In this document: positions 3,802 through 11,051 of the stretch, in pieces
Position numbering within the stretch: the first letter of the stretch is position 1
How the letters are laid out: every line of letters starts with the position of its first letter
Origin: Desulfobacteraceae bacterium
GTDB lineage: Bacteria; Desulfobacterota; DSM-4660; Desulfatiglandales; HGW-15
Reading direction: 5' to 3'
NCBI GenBank assembly: GCA_003819975.1
Contig: RPPU01000091.1
Span: 1 to 11,051, forward strand
Length of the DNA: 11,051 bases
Notes under the pieces: generated by a model
What the model was told of the DNA's origin: nothing
Databases searched by the model: none
What the model saw: the letters and a program-made list of their open reading frames with translations, nothing else
Translations under genes and position numbers: made by a program

Positions 3802-3967
3802 TGTGAAGTTGTAGATTTCTTCTTGGCAGCCGCAAAATAAAACAACTCGCCGCATCCATAAGGGCCATAACGTTAAAGTCACCGTCCGATTCGGTGTAAA
3901 TGGGCGCGTCGTTCAATTGGAACACGAGCCAGGCCTCATTGACCTGAAATTGATTCGGATGAAGCAT
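3802..3967 (-). pseudogene. 5' fragment of an unrecognised gene, cut off against the lysR 3' end
   Basis: An ATG at 3965-3967 is preceded by AGAGGA at good spacing and opens a frame whose first 45 or so residues look like real protein (FQVNEAWLVFQLNDAPIY, then DGDFNVMALMDAASCFIL). After about position 3835 the composition changes to basic, low-quality sequence (RLPRRNLQLH and onward) and the frame continues antisense through the last 119 bp of lysR, which is not credible as coding. The fragment begins 10 bp after an attC-like site, so it looks like the start of a cassette gene whose 3' part and own attC were lost. I do not recognise the family. Confidence 0.55.
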
Positions 3968-3977
3968 GAATTCCTCT

Positions 3978-4105
3978 GTTGAACGGCAAGGGTTCAGCCG
4001 CGCGCGGGGTTAGTCGACAGCGCTTCGTTCACTGGCGCAACTCGATAGCGAACCACCTCACGAGTTCAGCGCGCAAAAGCGCGTCGGTTGGACCCAGTGT
4101 TAGGC
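3978..4105 (-). repeat. attC-like integron recombination site (128 bp)
   Basis: On the minus strand the site opens with GCCTAAC (4099-4105, perfect RYYYAAC core), whose TAA is the stop codon of the preceding gene, and closes with GTTCAAC (3978-3984). Just inside, GGGTCCAACCG can pair with CGGCTGAACCC at 9 of 11 positions, as L'' and L' arms do. Internal arms (CACTGG with CCAGTG, and a GCGCGC hairpin with an AAAA loop) fill the centre. A Shine-Dalgarno and start codon follow at once. The R' core is imperfect and the site is long, so confidence is moderate. Confidence 0.55.
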
Positions 4106-4720
4106 CGCGTCTTGCTTGGCCTGTTGAATCGTTGCCGCCGAGACGCTTGCTTGTAGTGTGCACAGTGAGCCGCCATGAGGTGTTTTCAAAAACTTGCCGA
4201 ACATCATTAAGGCTTCATCTGTCTCTTTACGCGACGTGCCACAGGTTTCTACTATAGTATCGAAAAATAACACATATTCTTGTAAGTAGACCTGTTCAGT
4301 CGGTGAACCTGATAAGCTATTGTAACGCAAAAAACGGAACGCTCTAAACACATGCTGGTCGAAGATGGGATAACATTGTGGCAAGGTTATATGCAGCAAG
4401 AATATTTTCCAGATGGTTGTGACTTTATCAAATACGTTTTGGAATGCGTCAAGACTGAAATCTGCTTTTAGTCGGTTGATGACGTCCAAATGGCGCGTTA
4501 TCTCTCGTAAAGCCTTTAGCTTCTTACCGCTCAACTTCATTCCATTTTTCCACAAGAACAGATTCTCTACATCGCTGGCCGAAAATGTCCCTTTGTTGAT
4601 GTTGTCGTGATAAAGATGTTCCTGTGGATAGTTGTAAAAATTGCTCCAAAAATTGATAAACTGTTGTGGGGTTATGTTCCAGTCAAATGACAATCGTGGA
4701 AATTTAATCGTTGCTGTCAT
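4100..4720 (-). CDS. Unrecognised 206-aa cassette-type protein
   Basis: I do not recognise a named family. The 206-aa product is cytoplasmic, with no signal peptide or membrane segment, and is rich in aromatic residues (DWNITPQQFINFWSNFYNYP, residues 13-32). A short motif LFLWKNGMKLSGKK (54-67) and the helix-rich stretch IWKIFLLHITLP...YPIFDQHVFRAFRFL (103-131) look conserved. The second stretch is loosely reminiscent of helix-hairpin-helix glycosylase-like folds, which is only a guess. The last 23 or so residues are low in complexity (Ala/Gln) and may be tail. The stop codon lies inside an attC-like site and another such site precedes the gene, which marks it as an integron cassette gene. 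No strong SD precedes the ATG at 4718-4720. Confidence 0.72.
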   Translation of the reverse strand: MTATIKFPRLSFDWNITPQQFINFWSNFYNYPQEHLYHDNINKGTFSASDVENLFLWKNGMKLSGKKLKALREITRHLDVINRLKADFSLDAFQNVFDKVTTIWKIFLLHITLPQCYPIFDQHVFRAFRFLRYNSLSGSPTEQVYLQEYVLFFDTIVETCGTSRKETDEALMMFGKFLKTPHGGSLCTLQASVSAATIQQAKQDAA

Positions 4721-4759
4721 CTTTGCTTACCTTGCGCGTTTCTTCGATTGCGGTGGGCG

Positions 4760-4824
4760 GCCGAACGATTAATATTGTATGCTGAGTCAACGCGCAGAGG
4801 GATTCAGCAGACAATTTGTTGGAC
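4760..4824 (-). repeat. attC-like integron recombination site (65 bp)
   Basis: On the minus strand the site begins with GTCCAAC (4818-4824, perfect RYYYAAC) and ends with GTTCGGC (4760-4766, one base off GTTRRRY). Between them ATTGTCTGCTGA pairs with TCAGCATACAAT with a single mismatch, giving the expected long imperfect stem around an unpaired centre. It separates the toxin-antitoxin pair from the 206-aa gene. The distance from the mazF stop to this site is about 117 bp, longer than usual for a cassette. The rest of the 4825-4940 gap holds only short hairpins and no gene. Confidence 0.6.
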
Positions 4825-4940: not shown

Positions 4941-5264
4941 TTAAAAAGCAAATAGCTGTTGTAAAACTGAAATCACTTTTAACTGGGTTTCGGAATCAAG
5001 CGTACCGAGATTTTTTACAAGTCTGGTTTTGTCTATTGTTCGGATCTGATCCAATACAATTTGCCCCTTTTTTTTCATGAATTCGCATGCTATTCGTGTC
5101 GGATATTCTTTCCTCGCGGTTGTCATTGGAGCAACGATGACGGTGCTTATGAATTTATTCATCTCGTCCGGTGAAATAATCACACAAGGTCGTGTTTTCC
5201 GTATTTCCGCGCCGACCGTAGGATCAAGATTGATCAGATAGATATCGAATCGATTCACTGCCAT
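4941..5264 (-). CDS. mazF: MazF/PemK-family endoribonuclease toxin
   Basis: The 107-aa product has the hallmarks of MazF/PemK toxins, which cleave mRNA and are held inactive by their partner antitoxin. Near the N-terminus are RFDIYLINLDPTVGAEIRK (5-23) and the conserved RPCVIIS (25-31), followed by the second active-site strand VIVAPMTT (42-49) and the Gly-Gln-Ile/Asp-Gln-Ile-Arg pair (67-75) typical of the fold. The length is normal. Two start codons are possible: the ATG at 5270 lies directly on the GAGGA motif, while the ATG at 5264 is six bases from it, so 5264 is preferred. The start overlaps the end of the antitoxin gene, giving translational coupling. Confidence 0.93.
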   Translation of the reverse strand: MAVNRFDIYLINLDPTVGAEIRKTRPCVIISPDEMNKFISTVIVAPMTTARKEYPTRIACEFMKKKGQIVLDQIRTIDKTRLVKNLGTLDSETQLKVISVLQQLFAF

Positions 5265-5512
5265 TGCCATTCCTCTTCATCCCACGAATTTGAAATAGGG
5301 TCGTTTCCGTCTATTAAGATATCATCGCCTTTTTGGGCCATTTTCCTGAACGCCTCATCCCAACCAAGCCTTGGACTGAAGATTGGACGAATAATGATTT
5401 GGGTTTTTTCCACTTCAAGCTCGACATCATCCGTAATACCGGTTTGATCAAGTAATGGTTTTGGAATTCTAATTCCCTGGGAATTGCCTATTTTAATAAT
5501 ACGCGCTCTCAT
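5255..5512 (-). CDS. mazE: MazE-like AbrB-type antitoxin
   Basis: The 85-aa product begins MRARIIKIGNSQGIRIPK, the signature of the AbrB/SpoVT swapped-hairpin DNA-binding fold of MazE antitoxins (residues 1-43). The C-terminal half (about 47-85) is acidic, with a final Asp/Glu/Trp-rich segment, as expected for the disordered tail that wraps and inhibits MazF. The start at 5512 is decided by AAGGAGG (5518-5524) five bases upstream; the open frame extends 19 codons further up but that extension crosses the SD and operator. Its last codons overlap mazF. The pair has its own promoter, which fits a cassette-borne toxin-antitoxin module. Confidence 0.92.
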   Translation of the reverse strand: MRARIIKIGNSQGIRIPKPLLDQTGITDDVELEVEKTQIIIRPIFSPRLGWDEAFRKMAQKGDDILIDGNDPISNSWDEEEWQWQ

Positions 5513-5533
5513 TTTTTCCTCCTTGGTCATAGG

Positions 5534-5569
5534 TGCATACATTGTAATTACATGCATTATAAAAGTCAA
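5534..5569 (-). promoter_or_regulatory. mazEF promoter with overlapping palindromic operator
   Basis: On the minus strand TTGACT (5564-5569) and TACAAT (5541-5546) are spaced by exactly 17 bp, a near-consensus sigma-70 promoter. The -10 region lies in a partly palindromic block at 5534-5556, with TGCAT/ATGCA outer arms and a central GTAATTAC. AbrB-type antitoxins repress their own promoters by binding such palindromes, so this is the likely autoregulatory operator. Confidence 0.72.
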
Positions 5570-5760: not shown

Positions 5761-6906
5761 ATGAAAACGGAAATTCAAAATAAATTACAGCAGATGGTGG
5801 AACAAAACCTGATCGACATCGAAGAGGCCAAGGAAAAAGGCAAAAAAGTAATCGGATTATATTGCTTATATTCTCCGGCTGAACTGGCCGTGGCCGCCGG
5901 GGCGATCCCTTTGCCGCTTTGCGGCACGCGCAACGATCCGATTCAGGCAGCCGAAGAAGTCCTGCCCCGGAATTTGTGTCCCCTAATCAAAAGCAGTTAC
6001 GGATTTGCCGCTACCGGCACTTGTCCCTATTTCCGTTTCTCGGATTTCCTGGTGGCCGACACCACCTGCGACGGGAAAAAAAAGATGTATGAACTACTCT
6101 CCGCTTTCAAACCCCTGCATGTCTTGCAGCTGCCGCAGAATCAAGACCCCTCCAGCGCTCTGCCCTTTTGGCTTGAAGAAGTTAAAAAATGTAAAGGATT
6201 CATCGAACGCCAAACCGGGGTTTCCATAACCGATGCCAAGCTTTCAGCCGCCATCCGGCTTATGAACCAAGAACGCCTGGCGCAAAAAGCTCTGATGGAT
6301 CTTGCCAAAATCAAGCCGTCACCGATCAGCGGAATGGATCTTTTAACTATTCTGTTCCGTACCGGTTTTTTCGCCGACAAAGCGCAAGGCATTCGCTTAA
6401 TCCATGAAATTGCGGCTGAGATCCGCAATGATGCTTCCCAAGGCATGCACCCATTTTCTCCGCATGCACCGCGGATACTCTTAACCGGGGTGCCGGTTGG
6501 TTTAGGCTCGGACAAGGTCATAAAACTACTCGAAGCAGCCGGCGGCAATGTGGTTTGCTTTGAAAGTTGCAGCGGTTATAAAAAAGTTTTTCAGATCGAT
6601 GAAACCATTGATCCCCTGCAAGCCATTGCGGAACAATACTTGAGCACGCCTTGCTCGGTCATGTCGCCCAATCAGGGCCGCTTGGATTTACTGGACCGGC
6701 TGATCAAGGAATTTTCCGTGGACGGCGTGGTGGATCTTACTTGGCAGGCCTGCCATACTTATAATGTCGAGTCTTATAACATCGGAAAATTCGTGCAGGA
6801 AAAGCATCGCCTGCCCTTCCTGCACCTTGAAACCGATTTCAGCGAAGCCGACACCGAGACCTTGCGGGTCAGGATCGAGGCGTTTCTTGAAATGGTGATA
6901 AAATAA
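5761..6906 (+). CDS. yjiM: Double-cubane-cluster anaerobic reductase, YjiM type (2-hydroxyacyl-CoA dehydratase family)
   Basis: This 381-aa protein belongs to the HgdB/BcrB-like family and matches E. coli YjiM in length and motifs. Relatives bind a double-cubane iron-sulfur cluster and reduce small or unactivated substrates using electrons driven in by an ATP-hydrolysing partner; the natural substrate is unknown. Conserved cysteine motifs are all present: YCLYSP (C35), LCGTR (C54), PRNLCPLIKSSYG (C73), CPYFRFSD (C88), TTCDGKKKMYE (C103), ESCSG (C270), CSVMSPN (C298) and QACHTYNVES (C331). A helical insert (about 135-225) joins two Rossmann-like halves, the second starting at RILLTGVP (238-245). 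It is cytoplasmic. The start lacks a strong SD. The activase gene yjiL follows after a terminator and a 185-bp gap. The family assignment is firm, the substrate open. Confidence 0.93.
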   Translation: MKTEIQNKLQQMVEQNLIDIEEAKEKGKKVIGLYCLYSPAELAVAAGAIPLPLCGTRNDPIQAAEEVLPRNLCPLIKSSYGFAATGTCPYFRFSDFLVADTTCDGKKKMYELLSAFKPLHVLQLPQNQDPSSALPFWLEEVKKCKGFIERQTGVSITDAKLSAAIRLMNQERLAQKALMDLAKIKPSPISGMDLLTILFRTGFFADKAQGIRLIHEIAAEIRNDASQGMHPFSPHAPRILLTGVPVGLGSDKVIKLLEAAGGNVVCFESCSGYKKVFQIDETIDPLQAIAEQYLSTPCSVMSPNQGRLDLLDRLIKEFSVDGVVDLTWQACHTYNVESYNIGKFVQEKHRLPFLHLETDFSEADTETLRVRIEAFLEMVIK

Positions 6907-7091: not shown

Positions 7092-7847
7092 ATGAAATAT
7101 GCAGGCCTTGACATCGGCTCACGAACCATTGAACTGGTTATTATCGAAGATGGTAAAGTAGTGGAATCCAAACAAGCCGACACCGGATTTGATCCTTTAA
7201 AACAGGCTCAGACGCTTCTTGACGGTGTAAAACACGACCGTCTCATGGCCACCGGCTACGGCCGCCATTTGGCCGCCGATGCGTTCGGCGCCGCCACGGT
7301 CACGGAGATTAAAGCCTATGCGGTCGGCGCCAGATCGATTTTTCCGGAAGCCCGCGCCATCCTGGATATCGGCGGCCAGGATTCCAAGGCCATCAGCCTG
7401 GACCAAGCCGGAAATATACTTAAATTCGAAATGAACGACCGCTGCGCCGCCGGCACCGGCAAATTTTTGGAGATCATGGCTCATGCCCTGGGTTATTCCA
7501 TGGAGCAGTTCGGCCCGGCCGCCTTGCAGGGCAAGGGCGCGTTAGCCATCAACAGCATGTGCACGGTATTTGCGGAATCGGAAGTGATCTCGCTGATCGC
7601 ACGCAACGAAAAACGGGAAAACATCGCTCAGGCGCTGCATCAAACGATTGTGAAAAGAGCGCTGGCTATGATCAAACGGGTTGGTCTGCACCAGCCATTG
7701 TTTTTCGCCGGCGGGGTCGCGCGCAATGTTTGCGTCCATCAACTCTTGGAAAGAATGATCGCCAACGCGGTCCTGGTGCCTGAAGAGCCGCAGATGACCG
7801 GCGCCCTCGGCGCGGCCTGGATCGCGGCGATGAATGAAAAGAAATGA
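7092..7847 (+). CDS. yjiL: ATP-dependent activase of the YjiM reductase (BadF/BadG/HgdC family, YjiL)
   Basis: The 251-aa product is an ASKHA-fold ATPase of the HgdC/YjiL type, which forms a homodimer around one [4Fe-4S] cluster and uses ATP hydrolysis to push a low-potential electron into its partner reductase. Visible motifs in order: phosphate 1 loop DIGSRTIE (7-14), the conserved ATGYGR (53-58), phosphate 2 loop DIGGQDSKA (92-100), cluster ligand region DRCAAGTGKFLE (C118), second cluster cysteine SMCTVFAESEV (C157), and the adenosine loop FAGGVARN (205-212). All key residues are intact and the length is normal. AAGGA lies 6-10 bases upstream of the ATG. Its neighbour yjiM is the obvious partner. 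An element of 235 bp separates it from yedF. Confidence 0.94.
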   Translation: MKYAGLDIGSRTIELVIIEDGKVVESKQADTGFDPLKQAQTLLDGVKHDRLMATGYGRHLAADAFGAATVTEIKAYAVGARSIFPEARAILDIGGQDSKAISLDQAGNILKFEMNDRCAAGTGKFLEIMAHALGYSMEQFGPAALQGKGALAINSMCTVFAESEVISLIARNEKRENIAQALHQTIVKRALAMIKRVGLHQPLFFAGGVARNVCVHQLLERMIANAVLVPEEPQMTGALGAAWIAAMNEKK

Positions 7848-7852
7848 AATCA

Positions 7853-8089
<237 letters not shown>

Positions 8090-8109
8090 ATTTTCAAAGG
8101 AGAAAAATC

Positions 8110-8872: not shown

Positions 8873-8933
8873 GCCGAACGCCAAAGCGCAGCTTTTTGCG
8901 ATCCGCTGGAACCTTTTATTTACTGTGTTAGTT
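8873..8933 (-). repeat. Degraded attC-like site
   Basis: On the minus strand the site begins at the stop codon of the secreted gene (AACTAAC, 8927-8933) and ends with GTTCGGC (8873-8879), the same end seen at 4760-4766. It shares the 14-mer TTCCAGCGGATCGC with the good attC at 10543-10608. Stem pairing is weak (CCA/TGG, CGCA/TGCG and an AAAGC/GCTTT hairpin), so the site is probably diverged or inactive. Confidence 0.45.
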
Positions 8934-9497
8934 TTTTATGTGCATCTTATTAAAATCGCCGATCCAAAGCACGGTCTCACCGTCTTCAAGAAAATGCATA
9001 AGTAGTTTGTGATTTTTATTATCGGCAACGAATATAGGTTCCGTAATATCGTATGGAATCATGGCCCAGTATATTTGAAGCTCGATAGAATTGGGCTTGC
9101 GGATTTTAAAGGCACTGCCGTCTGCCTCAAGATATTTTTCCATGCTTGTGCAGAATGCAGTAATTTCTGTTTTGCTCTGAAATAGCGCTCCTTCAAATTT
9201 CTGCGCACCTCCAGTGCTTTTCGGCACAAAAATATTTGCCGGTGTTATGTTCATGTCTTTAAGTGGATTCTCTTTTTTCAGAGTGAGCCAAGGTTGAGGC
9301 CCACAGACGACTTTGGAACCAAAGAGAGTGTTCAATTTGATGGGATTTTGGCAAAAAATGGTCTCCAGCTTTTTCAATGCTTTTCCATTAAGTTCATCTG
9401 ATGCCTTGATATAACGGACACCTGGAGGAATCTCCTGTGCAGTCATAGCGGAAATAAATATTGCAGCCGCAATGAGAAAGTACGTGATTTTTTTCAT
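8928..9497 (-). CDS. Unrecognised secreted protein (189 aa)
   Basis: The product starts MKKITYFLIAAAIFISAMTA with a clear signal peptide, probably cut after residue 20. The mature part (about 169 aa) has three cysteines (49, 65, 116), mixed strands and helices, and no recognised family. The start at 9497 is decided by GGAGG (9503-9507) five bases upstream and by the signal peptide that follows. The frame stays open for 50 codons further upstream to 9647, but that stretch is group II intron RNA sequence, not coding. The stop lies inside a degraded attC-like site, so this is probably a cassette gene, although the intron remnant now occupies the place of the upstream cassette junction. Confidence 0.75.
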   Translation of the reverse strand: MKKITYFLIAAAIFISAMTAQEIPPGVRYIKASDELNGKALKKLETIFCQNPIKLNTLFGSKVVCGPQPWLTLKKENPLKDMNITPANIFVPKSTGGAQKFEGALFQSKTEITAFCTSMEKYLEADGSAFKIRKPNSIELQIYWAMIPYDITEPIFVADNKNHKLLMHFLEDGETVLWIGDFNKMHIKN

Positions 9498-9528
9498 TTG
9501 TTCCTCCGTCGTCCTACATTTTTGTATT

Positions 9529-9647
9529 GGATTTCCTTCAGCCCCCATCTCACGATGACGCCCTTGTCCTTCTCCTAATCTTCGGCTCAGCAAAAACCTG
9601 GTACGTGGATTTTCACCCCCGCTAATTACGTGCCATGCCTGGCACAC
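9529..9647 (-). mobile_element. 5' fragment of a group II intron (domain I start), truncated
   Basis: On the minus strand the sequence opens GTGTGCCAGGCATGGCAC, the typical first bases of many bacterial group II introns, in which GTGCCA pairs with TGGCAC. It continues with a GGGGGTGAAAATCC segment, GAGCCGAAGATTAGGAGAAG and CAAGGGCGTCATCGTGAGA, and ends at GGGGCTGAAGGAAATCC, the order known from domain I of these introns. About 119 nt remain; there is no reverse transcriptase and no domain V or VI. The next gene starts 32 bp later. Just upstream is a hairpin (CGGCT tac AGCCG) that could be a remnant of an attC arm, a known target of group IIC-attC introns. The intron subclass cannot be told. 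Confidence 0.7.
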
Positions 9648-9693
9648 ACGATGGCATCATCGGCGGCTGTAAGCCGTCCGGTGGAGTGACGGA

Positions 9694-9999
9694 TTATGTC
9701 CTCTCACTTGTTAATTTTTTTGCAATTGCAACAGCATCTATAGCTGTATCACAAGAAACAACTTCTATCGGTTTATCCCAATTGTCCGCAAGCACAAGGT
9801 AAACCTTATATACTGCCTGATAAAATCCGATGTCGACAATAAGAGGTTTACCTTCTGTCTGTTCCAGCTCTGCCTGAAACAAGCCTTCAGATACATCGTA
9901 GTCCCGTTGGCCATTTTTGTCGAATGGAGGTTGGTCGGTAATCCTATCGAAAGTTACCTTCCAGCCTCTCGGTAAATCTACGGTAAATTTCTTATACAT
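9694..9999 (-). CDS. Unrecognised 101-aa cassette protein
   Basis: No family is recognised. The small soluble product begins MYKKFTVDLPRGWKVTFD, has a charged central part and a strand-rich segment IVDIGFYQAVYKVYLVL (54-70), and ends in an Ala-rich helix (86-101). It has no signal peptide. The start lies 12 bp after a good attC-like site with GAAGG as SD, exactly how integron cassette genes begin. Downstream, its own attC seems replaced by the hairpin and group II intron fragment (9529-9690). Confidence 0.72.
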   Translation of the reverse strand: MYKKFTVDLPRGWKVTFDRITDQPPFDKNGQRDYDVSEGLFQAELEQTEGKPLIVDIGFYQAVYKVYLVLADNWDKPIEVVSCDTAIDAVAIAKKLTSERT

Positions 10000-10011
10000 A
10001 GTTGCCTTCAG

Positions 10012-10088
10012 ACATAACGCTCCGCTGAAGTGCGGTAACCCGCCAGCGAAGCGGTGGGTTTGCCGTCGCTTCCAGCGGTTTGTTAACT
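10012..10088 (-). repeat. attC integron recombination site (77 bp)
   Basis: On the minus strand AGTTAAC (10082-10088), which contains the stop codon of the acetyltransferase, opens the site and GTTATGT (10012-10018) closes it. CCGCTGGAAG pairs with CTTCAGCGG leaving one extra G unpaired, the extrahelical base that marks attC sites. Inner arms (CGGCAAACCC with GGGTTACCG) and a central GC-rich loop follow. The next gene starts 12 bp later. Confidence 0.8.
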
Positions 10089-10529
10089 CTGTATTTTCTT
10101 TAGCTTCAACATCTCGTTGTTGCCCTTTGTTTCACCTGTCGGTCTGTATCCTAATTTTCGATAGAAACCATGTGCCCGAACACTGGAATCGGGATTCGAC
10201 CACAACCAAATTTCTTCGTGTTCAAACGACCACAGCCATTCGTGAAGCTTCTGCATCAACTTTTTACCGATACCTCTTCGTTCGTACTCCGGATAACATG
10301 CAACGACGATTATTTCCGCGGTTTTGCTGTCAGCCATAGCAAAGCCAACTGGTTTATCGGATACTTCGCACAACCATCCTACAACGGATCCATCCAACCA
10401 CATAGAAACCGATTCCGGCGTTACCCCAACTTCCGCGAGATCTTTCATGCTGAAGTGATTTTCTTTCGTAGACACCCTAATTCTTAATATATCGTCGATG
10501 TCCTTTTTCTCTATCTCTCTTAATCTCAT
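10083..10529 (-). CDS. GNAT-family N-acetyltransferase (cassette gene)
   Basis: The 148-aa product has the usual GNAT length and fold order. The N-terminus MRLREIEKKDIDDILRIR gives strand 1 and helix 1. Strand 4 and motif A follow as IIVVACYPEYERRGIGKKLM (73-92), where RRGIGK (84-89) binds the acetyl-CoA pyrophosphate. Motif B at the end is HGFYRKLGYRPTG (120-132). The acceptor, whether an amino group on a small molecule, peptide or protein, cannot be inferred. The gene is bracketed by attC-like sites at 10543-10608 and 10012-10088, starts 13 bp after the first and ends inside the second, so it is one complete cassette. Acetyltransferases are common cassette cargo. Confidence 0.92.
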   Translation of the reverse strand: MRLREIEKKDIDDILRIRVSTKENHFSMKDLAEVGVTPESVSMWLDGSVVGWLCEVSDKPVGFAMADSKTAEIIVVACYPEYERRGIGKKLMQKLHEWLWSFEHEEIWLWSNPDSSVRAHGFYRKLGYRPTGETKGNNEMLKLKKIQS

Positions 10530-10542
10530 TTTCTTTTTTCCG

Positions 10543-10608
10543 AGTTAACGTCGCCATTCAGCGGGAGCGGCGATTTTTGCCGCGATCCGCTGGAATGGCT
10601 TGTTGGGT
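10543..10608 (-). repeat. attC integron recombination site (66 bp)
   Basis: On the minus strand ACCCAAC (10602-10608, perfect RYYYAAC) opens and GTTAACT (10543-10549) closes the site. GCCATTCCAGCGG pairs with CCGCTGAATGGC along twelve bases with one extra C left unpaired, the classic extrahelical base. An inner GCGGC AAAAATC GCCGC hairpin completes it. It begins 10 bp after the stop codon of the upstream gene and ends 14 bp before the acetyltransferase start. Confidence 0.85.
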
Positions 10609-10617
10609 GGTTTCATT

Positions 10618-11043
10618 TCAGAACGGATAGTCGTCATGTCGAGTGACCACGCGAATGTCGCTATCGTTCTTGAAGAGCTTTTCAACTGCTCCAATGGTCT
10701 CCAACACGTTTTTCGAGTTATCTATTGATCTGAATTTCGACCAAGACCATTTTTTCCCATTTTGGATCGACGGCAAAATCGCATACCTCTCAGGGTTAGG
10801 ATTGGCGTCCGGATCGGAGTATATGCAGAGGGCCATTTTGAAACCATTACGATCCGTCTCAAGCCACCAACCCCAGTCTTCATTACAGTAAAATGGCACA
10901 TTGATCCCAATTGAGGGCAGTTGTGCTTCGAGGTACTTGCACAGTGCTTTGCCGTACATGTTTTCATTCGTAATCTCATCCTTCTCGCCATCGAGGATGG
11001 GAAACTTTTTCGTTTCAATAAGAAGACAGGATTGTGGAATCAT
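10618..11043 (-). CDS. Unrecognised 141-aa cassette protein with an EDWGWW motif
   Basis: I do not recognise a named family. The soluble 141-aa product has a helix YGKALCKYLEAQLPSIG (30-46), the aromatic motif CNEDWGWWLE (53-62), a strand GFKMALCIYSD (67-77), a W/S/K-rich loop (98-104) and a C-terminal helix VLETIGAVEKLF (113-124). It has no signal peptide or membrane segment. The ATG at 11041-11043 has GTAGGA just upstream, at the very edge of the window, so the gene appears complete. Its stop is 10 bp from an attC site, which marks it as a cassette gene. Confidence 0.78.
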   Translation of the reverse strand: MIPQSCLLIETKKFPILDGEKDEITNENMYGKALCKYLEAQLPSIGINVPFYCNEDWGWWLETDRNGFKMALCIYSDPDANPNPERYAILPSIQNGKKWSWSKFRSIDNSKNVLETIGAVEKLFKNDSDIRVVTRHDDYPF

Positions 11044-11051
11044 GTTCCTAC

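What the first reader, a model, noticed from the sequence alone, without database searches (positions are those of the whole stretch)
8873..11051. Integron cassette array without a visible integrase (CALIN-like)
Four small minus-strand genes stand head to tail. attC-like sites lie at 10543-10608, 10012-10088 and, degraded, 8873-8933. The first two show core boxes, long arms with one extrahelical base, and stop and start codons within 10-15 bp of the site. Three of the four genes belong to no family I recognise.
Basis: partly seen in the sequence, partly recalled or inferred. Interest (0 to 1): 0.7.

Follow-up and report, generated by a model that had tools for sequence, protein, structure and literature searches.

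The report
Decaying integron cassette array with intron fossil
The end of this DNA piece is a genuine row of integron gene cassettes, ordinary in kind, in which one recombination site has been cut by a broken group II intron whose relatives sit on the less expected strand of such sites.

Summary
A covariance model built only from 23 attC sites near integron integrases in related genomes finds attC at exactly 10543-10608 (44 bits, E 4e-9) and 10012-10088 (27 bits, E 5e-5), minus strand; it finds nothing at E<=5 in 1.27 Mb of control DNA. The third, degraded site is real but smaller: 8873-8924 keeps both half-sites, a pairing seen 0 times in the control DNA. So each of the four genes is followed by an attC or attC remnant. 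A second, tentative cluster lies at 3978-4824. 'CALIN' is unproven: the sequence stops where attI and intI would be. 10 of 14 related introns lie in the attC top strand (R' box), in the orientation of the cassettes, whereas the review passages I read put integron introns on the bottom strand, with one exception. The array is a new member of a known kind; the intron lineage is the part worth following.

The parts
10618..11043 (-). Cassette gene 1, 141 aa, uncharacterised family with EDWGWW motif
   Evidence: 244 proteins at E<=1e-3 including itself, 120 listed, none of these with a Pfam domain; 0 Pfam/NCBIfam families; confident model (pLDDT 93.8) without a clear PDB fold match
10543..10608 (-). 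attC 1, intact
   Evidence: R1 model 44.4 bits, E 4.2e-9; fold z -4.5
10083..10529 (-). Cassette gene 2, GNAT acetyltransferase, 148 aa
   Evidence: Pfam Acetyltransf_1 E 4.9e-15
10012..10088 (-). attC 2, intact
   Evidence: R1 model 27.2 bits, E 5.1e-5; fold z -5.8
9694..9999 (-). Cassette gene 3, 101 aa, nearly orphan
   Evidence: 2 other homologues, 77% identical, on contigs of 634 and 597 bases; no family
9648..9699 (-). attC 3 remnant: R''-L''-loop-L' kept, R' box cut by the intron fragment
   Evidence: 5' half-site ranks 3rd in the window, 15.0 bits (0.07 expected per window); R1 only a partial 5.9 bits; 82% identical over attC plus intron to L130
9507..9647 (-). 5' fragment of a group II intron (3' part, reverse transcriptase and domain V missing); start uncertain by 2 bases
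   Evidence: Rfam RF02001 group-II-D1D4-3 at 9396-9559, 27.1 bits, E 0.0036, below its gathering score of 32; 71-83% DNA identity to intron 5' ends in related genomes and matches in two plasmids
8928..9497 (-). Cassette gene 4, signal-peptide-like N terminus (by eye), unknown family
   Evidence: open frame; no family in Pfam/NCBIfam
8873..8924 (-). attC 4, decayed (R'' box has lost its AAC)
   Evidence: 5' half rank 4, 3' half rank 1 in the window; such a pair 0 times in 1.27 Mb; no full-model score, no stable fold
4760..4824 (-). Tentative attC A of a second cluster
   Evidence: R1 14.6 bits, E 0.051; + strand fold z -2.4, 4 of 200 shuffles as good
4100..4720 (-). Tentative cassette gene, 206 aa, HhH-GPD-like (DNA glycosylase) fold
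3978..4105 (-). Weak attC-like stretch B
   Evidence: R1 13.4 bits, E 0.099; fold no better than shuffles, z -0.4

Best explanation
8873-11051 is the distal part of an integron cassette array, probably in the chromosome of a Desulfobacterota-type bacterium that is not closely sampled. It holds four gene cassettes on the minus strand, each a gene followed by its attC: two attC are intact, one was cut when a group IIC-type intron inserted into the R' box of its top strand (the intron later lost everything but its first ~141 bases), and the last has decayed. Working model: an integron integrase (not in this sequence) uses the folded bottom strand of each intact attC (the window's + strand) and inserts or excises the cassette at the R' box; cassettes bounded by intact sites could still move, those with broken sites are locked. 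Shown: attC sites, their strand, the intron fragment and its junction. Inferred: mobility, expression, the order of events, chromosome and host.
For: Model R1 from 23 IntI-linked attC (none from the window); their stem covaries (score 0.399 against 0.04-0.11 when slid; 0 of 500 shuffles reach it; two of the five measures, pairs changed on both sides and further pair types, do not exceed shuffles). R1 hits both sites, hits nothing in 80 control loci at E<=5, and hits two class 1 attC sites in plasmid pR148, one directly after aadA1, at 36-39 bits. L120, a relative's array beside an IntI frame of 377 aa, has attC with the same core as attC 1. 4 of 4 genes are followed by a site or remnant. Intron; junction-spanning attC on the intron's strand in relatives. 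Host: of the 14 best relatives of the flanking 5761-6906 protein, 62-72% identical, 13 bear Desulfobacterota-type names and one is an uncultured bacterium; 10 of the 15 genomes I tested of these have IntI over the family cut-off.
Against: No integrase, attI or Pc seen. Sites 3 and 4 do not score with the full model. The Rfam hit for the intron is below the family's gathering score; DNA similarity carries that claim. Training sites were picked by a rule (core boxes plus pairing arms), which favours canonical sites, and one of them lies by an integrase fragment, not a whole integrase. Host assignment rests on one protein.
Confidence: 0.92

Rival explanations
1. True CALIN: cassettes stranded in the chromosome with no integrase near, left by loss of intI or by off-target insertion.
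For: Two of four sites decayed or cut; no IntI seen in the sequence; a tentative second, separate cluster on the same contig.
Against: The sequence ends on the side where intI would lie; 9 of 17 genomes of the family of G002 have IntI; decay of distal cassettes is also possible in complete integrons.
Confidence: 0.4
2. Tail of a complete integron whose integrase and attI lie just beyond 11051.
For: Array polarity points to 11051; the two intact sites are the ones nearest that end; IntI is common in related genomes.
Against: Nothing seen directly.
Confidence: 0.5
3. The inverted repeats are ordinary terminators or repetitive hairpins between unrelated genes, not attC.
For: Any strong hairpin can be mistaken for attC by eye; the degraded site does not fold.
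Against: R1 scores sequence and structure together, gave no + strand hit at E<=10 at either site and 0 hits in 80 control loci at E<=5.
Confidence: 0.03

Closest known systems
CALIN / sedentary chromosomal integron arrays (IntegronFinder classes)
   Same: Gene-attC repeats in one orientation, mostly unknown genes, decayed sites
   Different: Cannot be placed as CALIN or complete integron because the sequence ends on the proximal side
Integron L120 (G025:C271) beside IntI
   Same: attC core TCCAGCGGATCGC...GCTCCCGCTGA shared with attC 1
   Different: Other cassette genes as read; integrase present
Group IIC-attC introns (S.ma.I2 type; PMC7923331, passages)
   Same: Group II intron inserted in an attC site between the Ts of a GTT box
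   Different: Described introns lie on the attC bottom strand at R'' (TTGT/T), opposite to cassette transcription; this one and most of its close relatives lie on the top strand at R', same orientation as the genes
Group IIC intron of Enterobacter cloacae in an attC top strand (cited in PMC7923331 as a reported unusual case)
   Same: Top strand, same orientation

Membership tests
Integron gene cassette array (attC sites) | attC sites with R''/L''/L'/R' and bulged bottom strand | tested here: met
   Two sites by R1 and folding
Integron gene cassette array (attC sites) | One gene per attC, same orientation, short spacers | tested here: met
   4 of 4 minus-strand genes followed by a site or remnant
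Integron gene cassette array (attC sites) | Integrase-mediated recombination at these sites | not testable with these tools
   needs a recombination assay
CALIN | At least two attC sites in a cluster (IntegronFinder 2.0 default) | tested here: met
CALIN | No integron integrase nearby | tested here: inconclusive
   None among the window proteins scanned, but the sequence ends at the proximal side; no genome held
Complete integron | intI and attI adjacent to the array | tested here: inconclusive
   would lie beyond 11051
Group II intron | Conserved domain sequence and structure | tested here: inconclusive
   Only a 5' fragment is present; RF02001 27.1 bits, below its cut-off of 32. Its DNA relatives do qualify: RF02001 over cut-off in 7 of 8 loci (L150-L156), RF01998 over cut-off in 4, an RT frame in L150 and L151, RVT_1 and GIIM domains in pR148
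Group IIC-attC intron | Insertion into an attC site | tested here: met
   attC 3 remnant abuts the 5' end
Group IIC-attC intron | Bottom strand, opposite orientation to cassette genes (as described in PMC7923331) | tested here: not met
   Same strand as the gene and as the attC top strand here and in most close relatives

The most novel reading that the evidence does not exclude
The fossil belongs to a lineage of group II introns that homes to the top strand of attC, splitting the invariant CGTT of the R' box (CGT/T), the box where integron integrases recombine. It is spread through cassette arrays of Desulfobacterota-type bacteria and has reached class 1 integrons on plasmids, beside a separate, more distant lineage that uses the bottom strand. 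Lying in sense orientation, such introns could splice out of the array's mRNA while locking the cassette's recombination site in DNA, the opposite arrangement from the described bottom-strand introns.
Probability: 0.55. Interest if true: 0.6.

Novelty: new member of a known kind. Interest (0 to 1): 0.4.

Why it matters
The array itself adds little beyond new cassettes of unknown function. The intron fossil points to a strand choice opposite to the described one: a sense-oriented intron in the R' box would be removable from RNA yet block cassette shuffling in DNA, a possible way in which parts of arrays become fixed. Related introns occur in class 1 integrons on plasmids too.

Tried and rejected

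Corrected on re-reading: my note 7 says that no intron lies on the opposite strand; that is wrong. In one search the intron of L183 has an attC hit on the opposite strand (21.1 bits, E 0.011) directly upstream: a bottom-strand case.

Papers: only passages of PMC7923331, PMC8876359, PMC4424553, PMC9024848, PMC3053210 and PMC7370490 were read; two papers on intron targeting were not held. The Enterobacter cloacae report is known to me only through PMC7923331. That I know of just this one top-strand case in print rests on searches (listings) in an open-licence library; most subscription papers are missing.

Full report
What was checked. No genome is held for the 11051-base window; three of its proteins are listed in the protein database on a contig of just that length, which suggests that it is a whole contig. 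Four minus-strand genes fill 8928-11043. Rfam has no match in the window at its gathering thresholds, so an attC model had to be made.

An independent attC model. I looked for integron integrases in 15 of the 80 genomes that encode close relatives of the flanking 5761-6906 protein: 10 of 15 have IntI over the curated cut-off, and so do 9 of the 17 genomes given for the family of G002. Around these integrases I took 23 attC sites found by a rule (core boxes plus pairing arms) from L100, L101, L108, L120, L121, L123, L125 and L128; the L108 site lies by an integrase fragment. Rule hits that did not look like attC, or were not in such arrays, were left out by eye. In the alignment 85% of cells pair against 69% in shuffles, and the covariation score is 0.399 against 0.04-0.11 for slid structures (0 of 500 shuffles); two of the five measures (pairs changed on both sides, further pair types) do not exceed shuffles. 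The model R1 contains no window sequence.

Result in the window. R1 with filters off gives 12 matches at E<=10. The next two, 14.6 and 13.4 bits (E 0.05 and 0.10), lie on the same strand on either side of the gene at 4100-4720; the other 8 have E of 1.1 to 8.7. Controls: 0 matches at E<=5 in 80 loci, 1.27 Mb, fetched for an unrelated gene (default filters, and at that size the cut-off lies above the score of the two weak sites, so it does not test them). In plasmid pR148 R1 finds two class 1 attC sites, one directly after aadA1, at 36.4 and 38.9 bits. Single-strand folding agrees: z -4.5 and -5.8.

The degraded site. But half-site matrices from the same 23 sites, scanned over the window, rank its 5' half 4th and its 3' half 1st. 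A 5' half and a 3' half of at least 9 bits within 80 bases on one strand occur once in the window, here, and 0 times in the 1.27 Mb of control loci. I conclude that it is a decayed attC, 8873-8924.

The missing site and the intron. The same scan ranks 9675-9699 third (15.0 bits; 0.07 expected per window). It lies directly after the third gene. What follows is not an R' box but a sequence that matches Rfam group-II-D1D4-3 (27.1 bits, E 0.0036, under the gathering score of 32). The stretch 9520-9700 has DNA matches in 41 of 395 genomes of the phylum of G002 (at most 2 candidates per genome were scored); some are attC matches only, some intron matches. For that phylum the tool draws the same first-listed genomes as for G015, the genome of Desulfosediminicola flagellatus (NCBI phylum Thermodesulfobacteriota). 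The best match, L130, aligns across the attC-intron junction at 82% over 181 bases; similarity to five introns ends at 9507. In relatives the sequence continues with group II intron domains and a reverse transcriptase frame (L150, L151) or, in L153, leads to a domain V match of 39.6 bits (cut-off 40) about 450 bases on, without RT. So the window holds the first ~141 bases of such an intron, and a deletion has removed the rest with the end of the attC.

Strand of insertion. Of the 20 loci fetched, 13 hold an intron 5' end that aligned. I scored the 94 bases up to each junction (L140 has fewer, being cut by its contig start): 8 have a 5' attC half of 15.7-24.0 bits on the intron's own strand, with at most 2 control windows of the same locus reaching that; L135 has 8.2 bits with 3 control windows as good; L132, L137, L140 and L145 have none by this test. 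On the opposite strand the best of 13 is -0.5 bits. Bias: the query held 50 bases of attC, and L130, L133 and L138 matched through it; of the 10 others, 5 pass the half-site test. R1 finds an attC across the junction on the intron's strand in 7 of the 13 (L130, L133, L134, L135, L136, L138, L139; L145 was not in that call). A second search with intron sequence only gave matches in 29 of 390 genomes; of its 30 loci, 10 hold introns already counted and 20 are new. Among the 20, R1 finds a junction attC on the intron's strand in one (L166), on the opposite strand in one (L183, 21.1 bits, E 0.011), and none in 18; in four of these (L170, L174, L181, L188) the 5' flank looks by eye like a terminator, the usual target of group IIC introns (PMC4424553, passages); in many the 5' end could not be placed. 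L183's reverse transcriptase stretch is 45% identical to that of L151, against 52-62% for L150, L158 and L160, so the bottom-strand case is the more distant one. Taking the 13 plus L166 and both tests, 10 of 14 close relatives lie in an attC top strand and none in a bottom strand. The 5' exons mostly end in CGT, and, if the intron ends in AT as aligned by eye in L150, L151 and L153, the 3' exon begins with T, so the R' box is split as CGT/T. CGTT is invariant in my 23 sites. In plasmids pPp47 and pR148 an intron of this kind follows a cassette gene in the same orientation, and in pR148 R1 sees the attC across the junction on that strand. PMC7923331 (passages) describes IIC-attC introns as lying on the bottom strand at R'' (TTGT/T), opposite to cassette transcription, and cites one Enterobacter cloacae intron on the top strand as unusual.

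How it most likely works. Array, strand and junction are shown. That an integrase moved these cassettes, that sites 1 and 2 still work, and that the intron locked a site are inferences from what is known of integrons: IntI uses the folded bottom strand and its extrahelical bases (PMC3053210, passages). By my reading of the folds, attC 1 has a bulged G, the common base, and attC 2 a C.

The genes. Gene 1 belongs to a tight family of 244 proteins at E<=1e-3 (itself included; of the 120 listed many lie on contigs of a few kb or less), with no Pfam or NCBIfam family, no convincing PDB sequence relative (best E 0.17) and a confident alpha/beta model without a clear fold match. Gene 2 is a GNAT. Gene 3 has two other known homologues. 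Gene 4 has no family. The 206-aa gene of the second cluster has an HhH-GPD-like fold. In a metagenome survey about two thirds of cassette genes had unknown function, and acetyltransferases and toxin-antitoxin genes were among the commonest known ones (PMC7370490, passages), so this is typical.

Verdict.

Noticed in passing
window 9507-9699; L130, L133, L134, L136, L138, L139, L160, L166: Group II intron fragment and relatives inserted in the attC top strand at the R' box, same orientation as cassette genes, against the bottom-strand rule for IIC-attC introns.
   Followed up: partly
L183 1331-1421: A more distant intron with the attC on the opposite strand directly upstream, i.e. the described bottom-strand arrangement, in the same phylum.
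   Followed up: partly
window 3978-4824: Second possible cassette cluster: weak attC-like sites on both sides of an HhH-GPD-like gene (4100-4720), same strand as the main array; a further minus-strand ATG at 3967 follows 10 bases after the R' end of site B.
   Followed up: partly
window 4941-5569: MazF/PemK toxin and MazE antitoxin pair (Pfam) on the minus strand, upstream of the second cluster; no attC hit at its own start.
   Followed up: no
window 7847-8093: Two 37-base inverted arms, 89% complementary, 173 bases apart, between the activase and TusA-DsrE genes; looks like a small repeat element.
   Followed up: no
L153 5021-5471: An intron of the same lineage without a reverse transcriptase: 5' end and domain V match only about 450 bases apart.
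   Followed up: no
window 10618-11043: Gene 1 family (EDWGWW motif): 244 proteins at E<=1e-3 in the protein database, no named family.
   Followed up: partly
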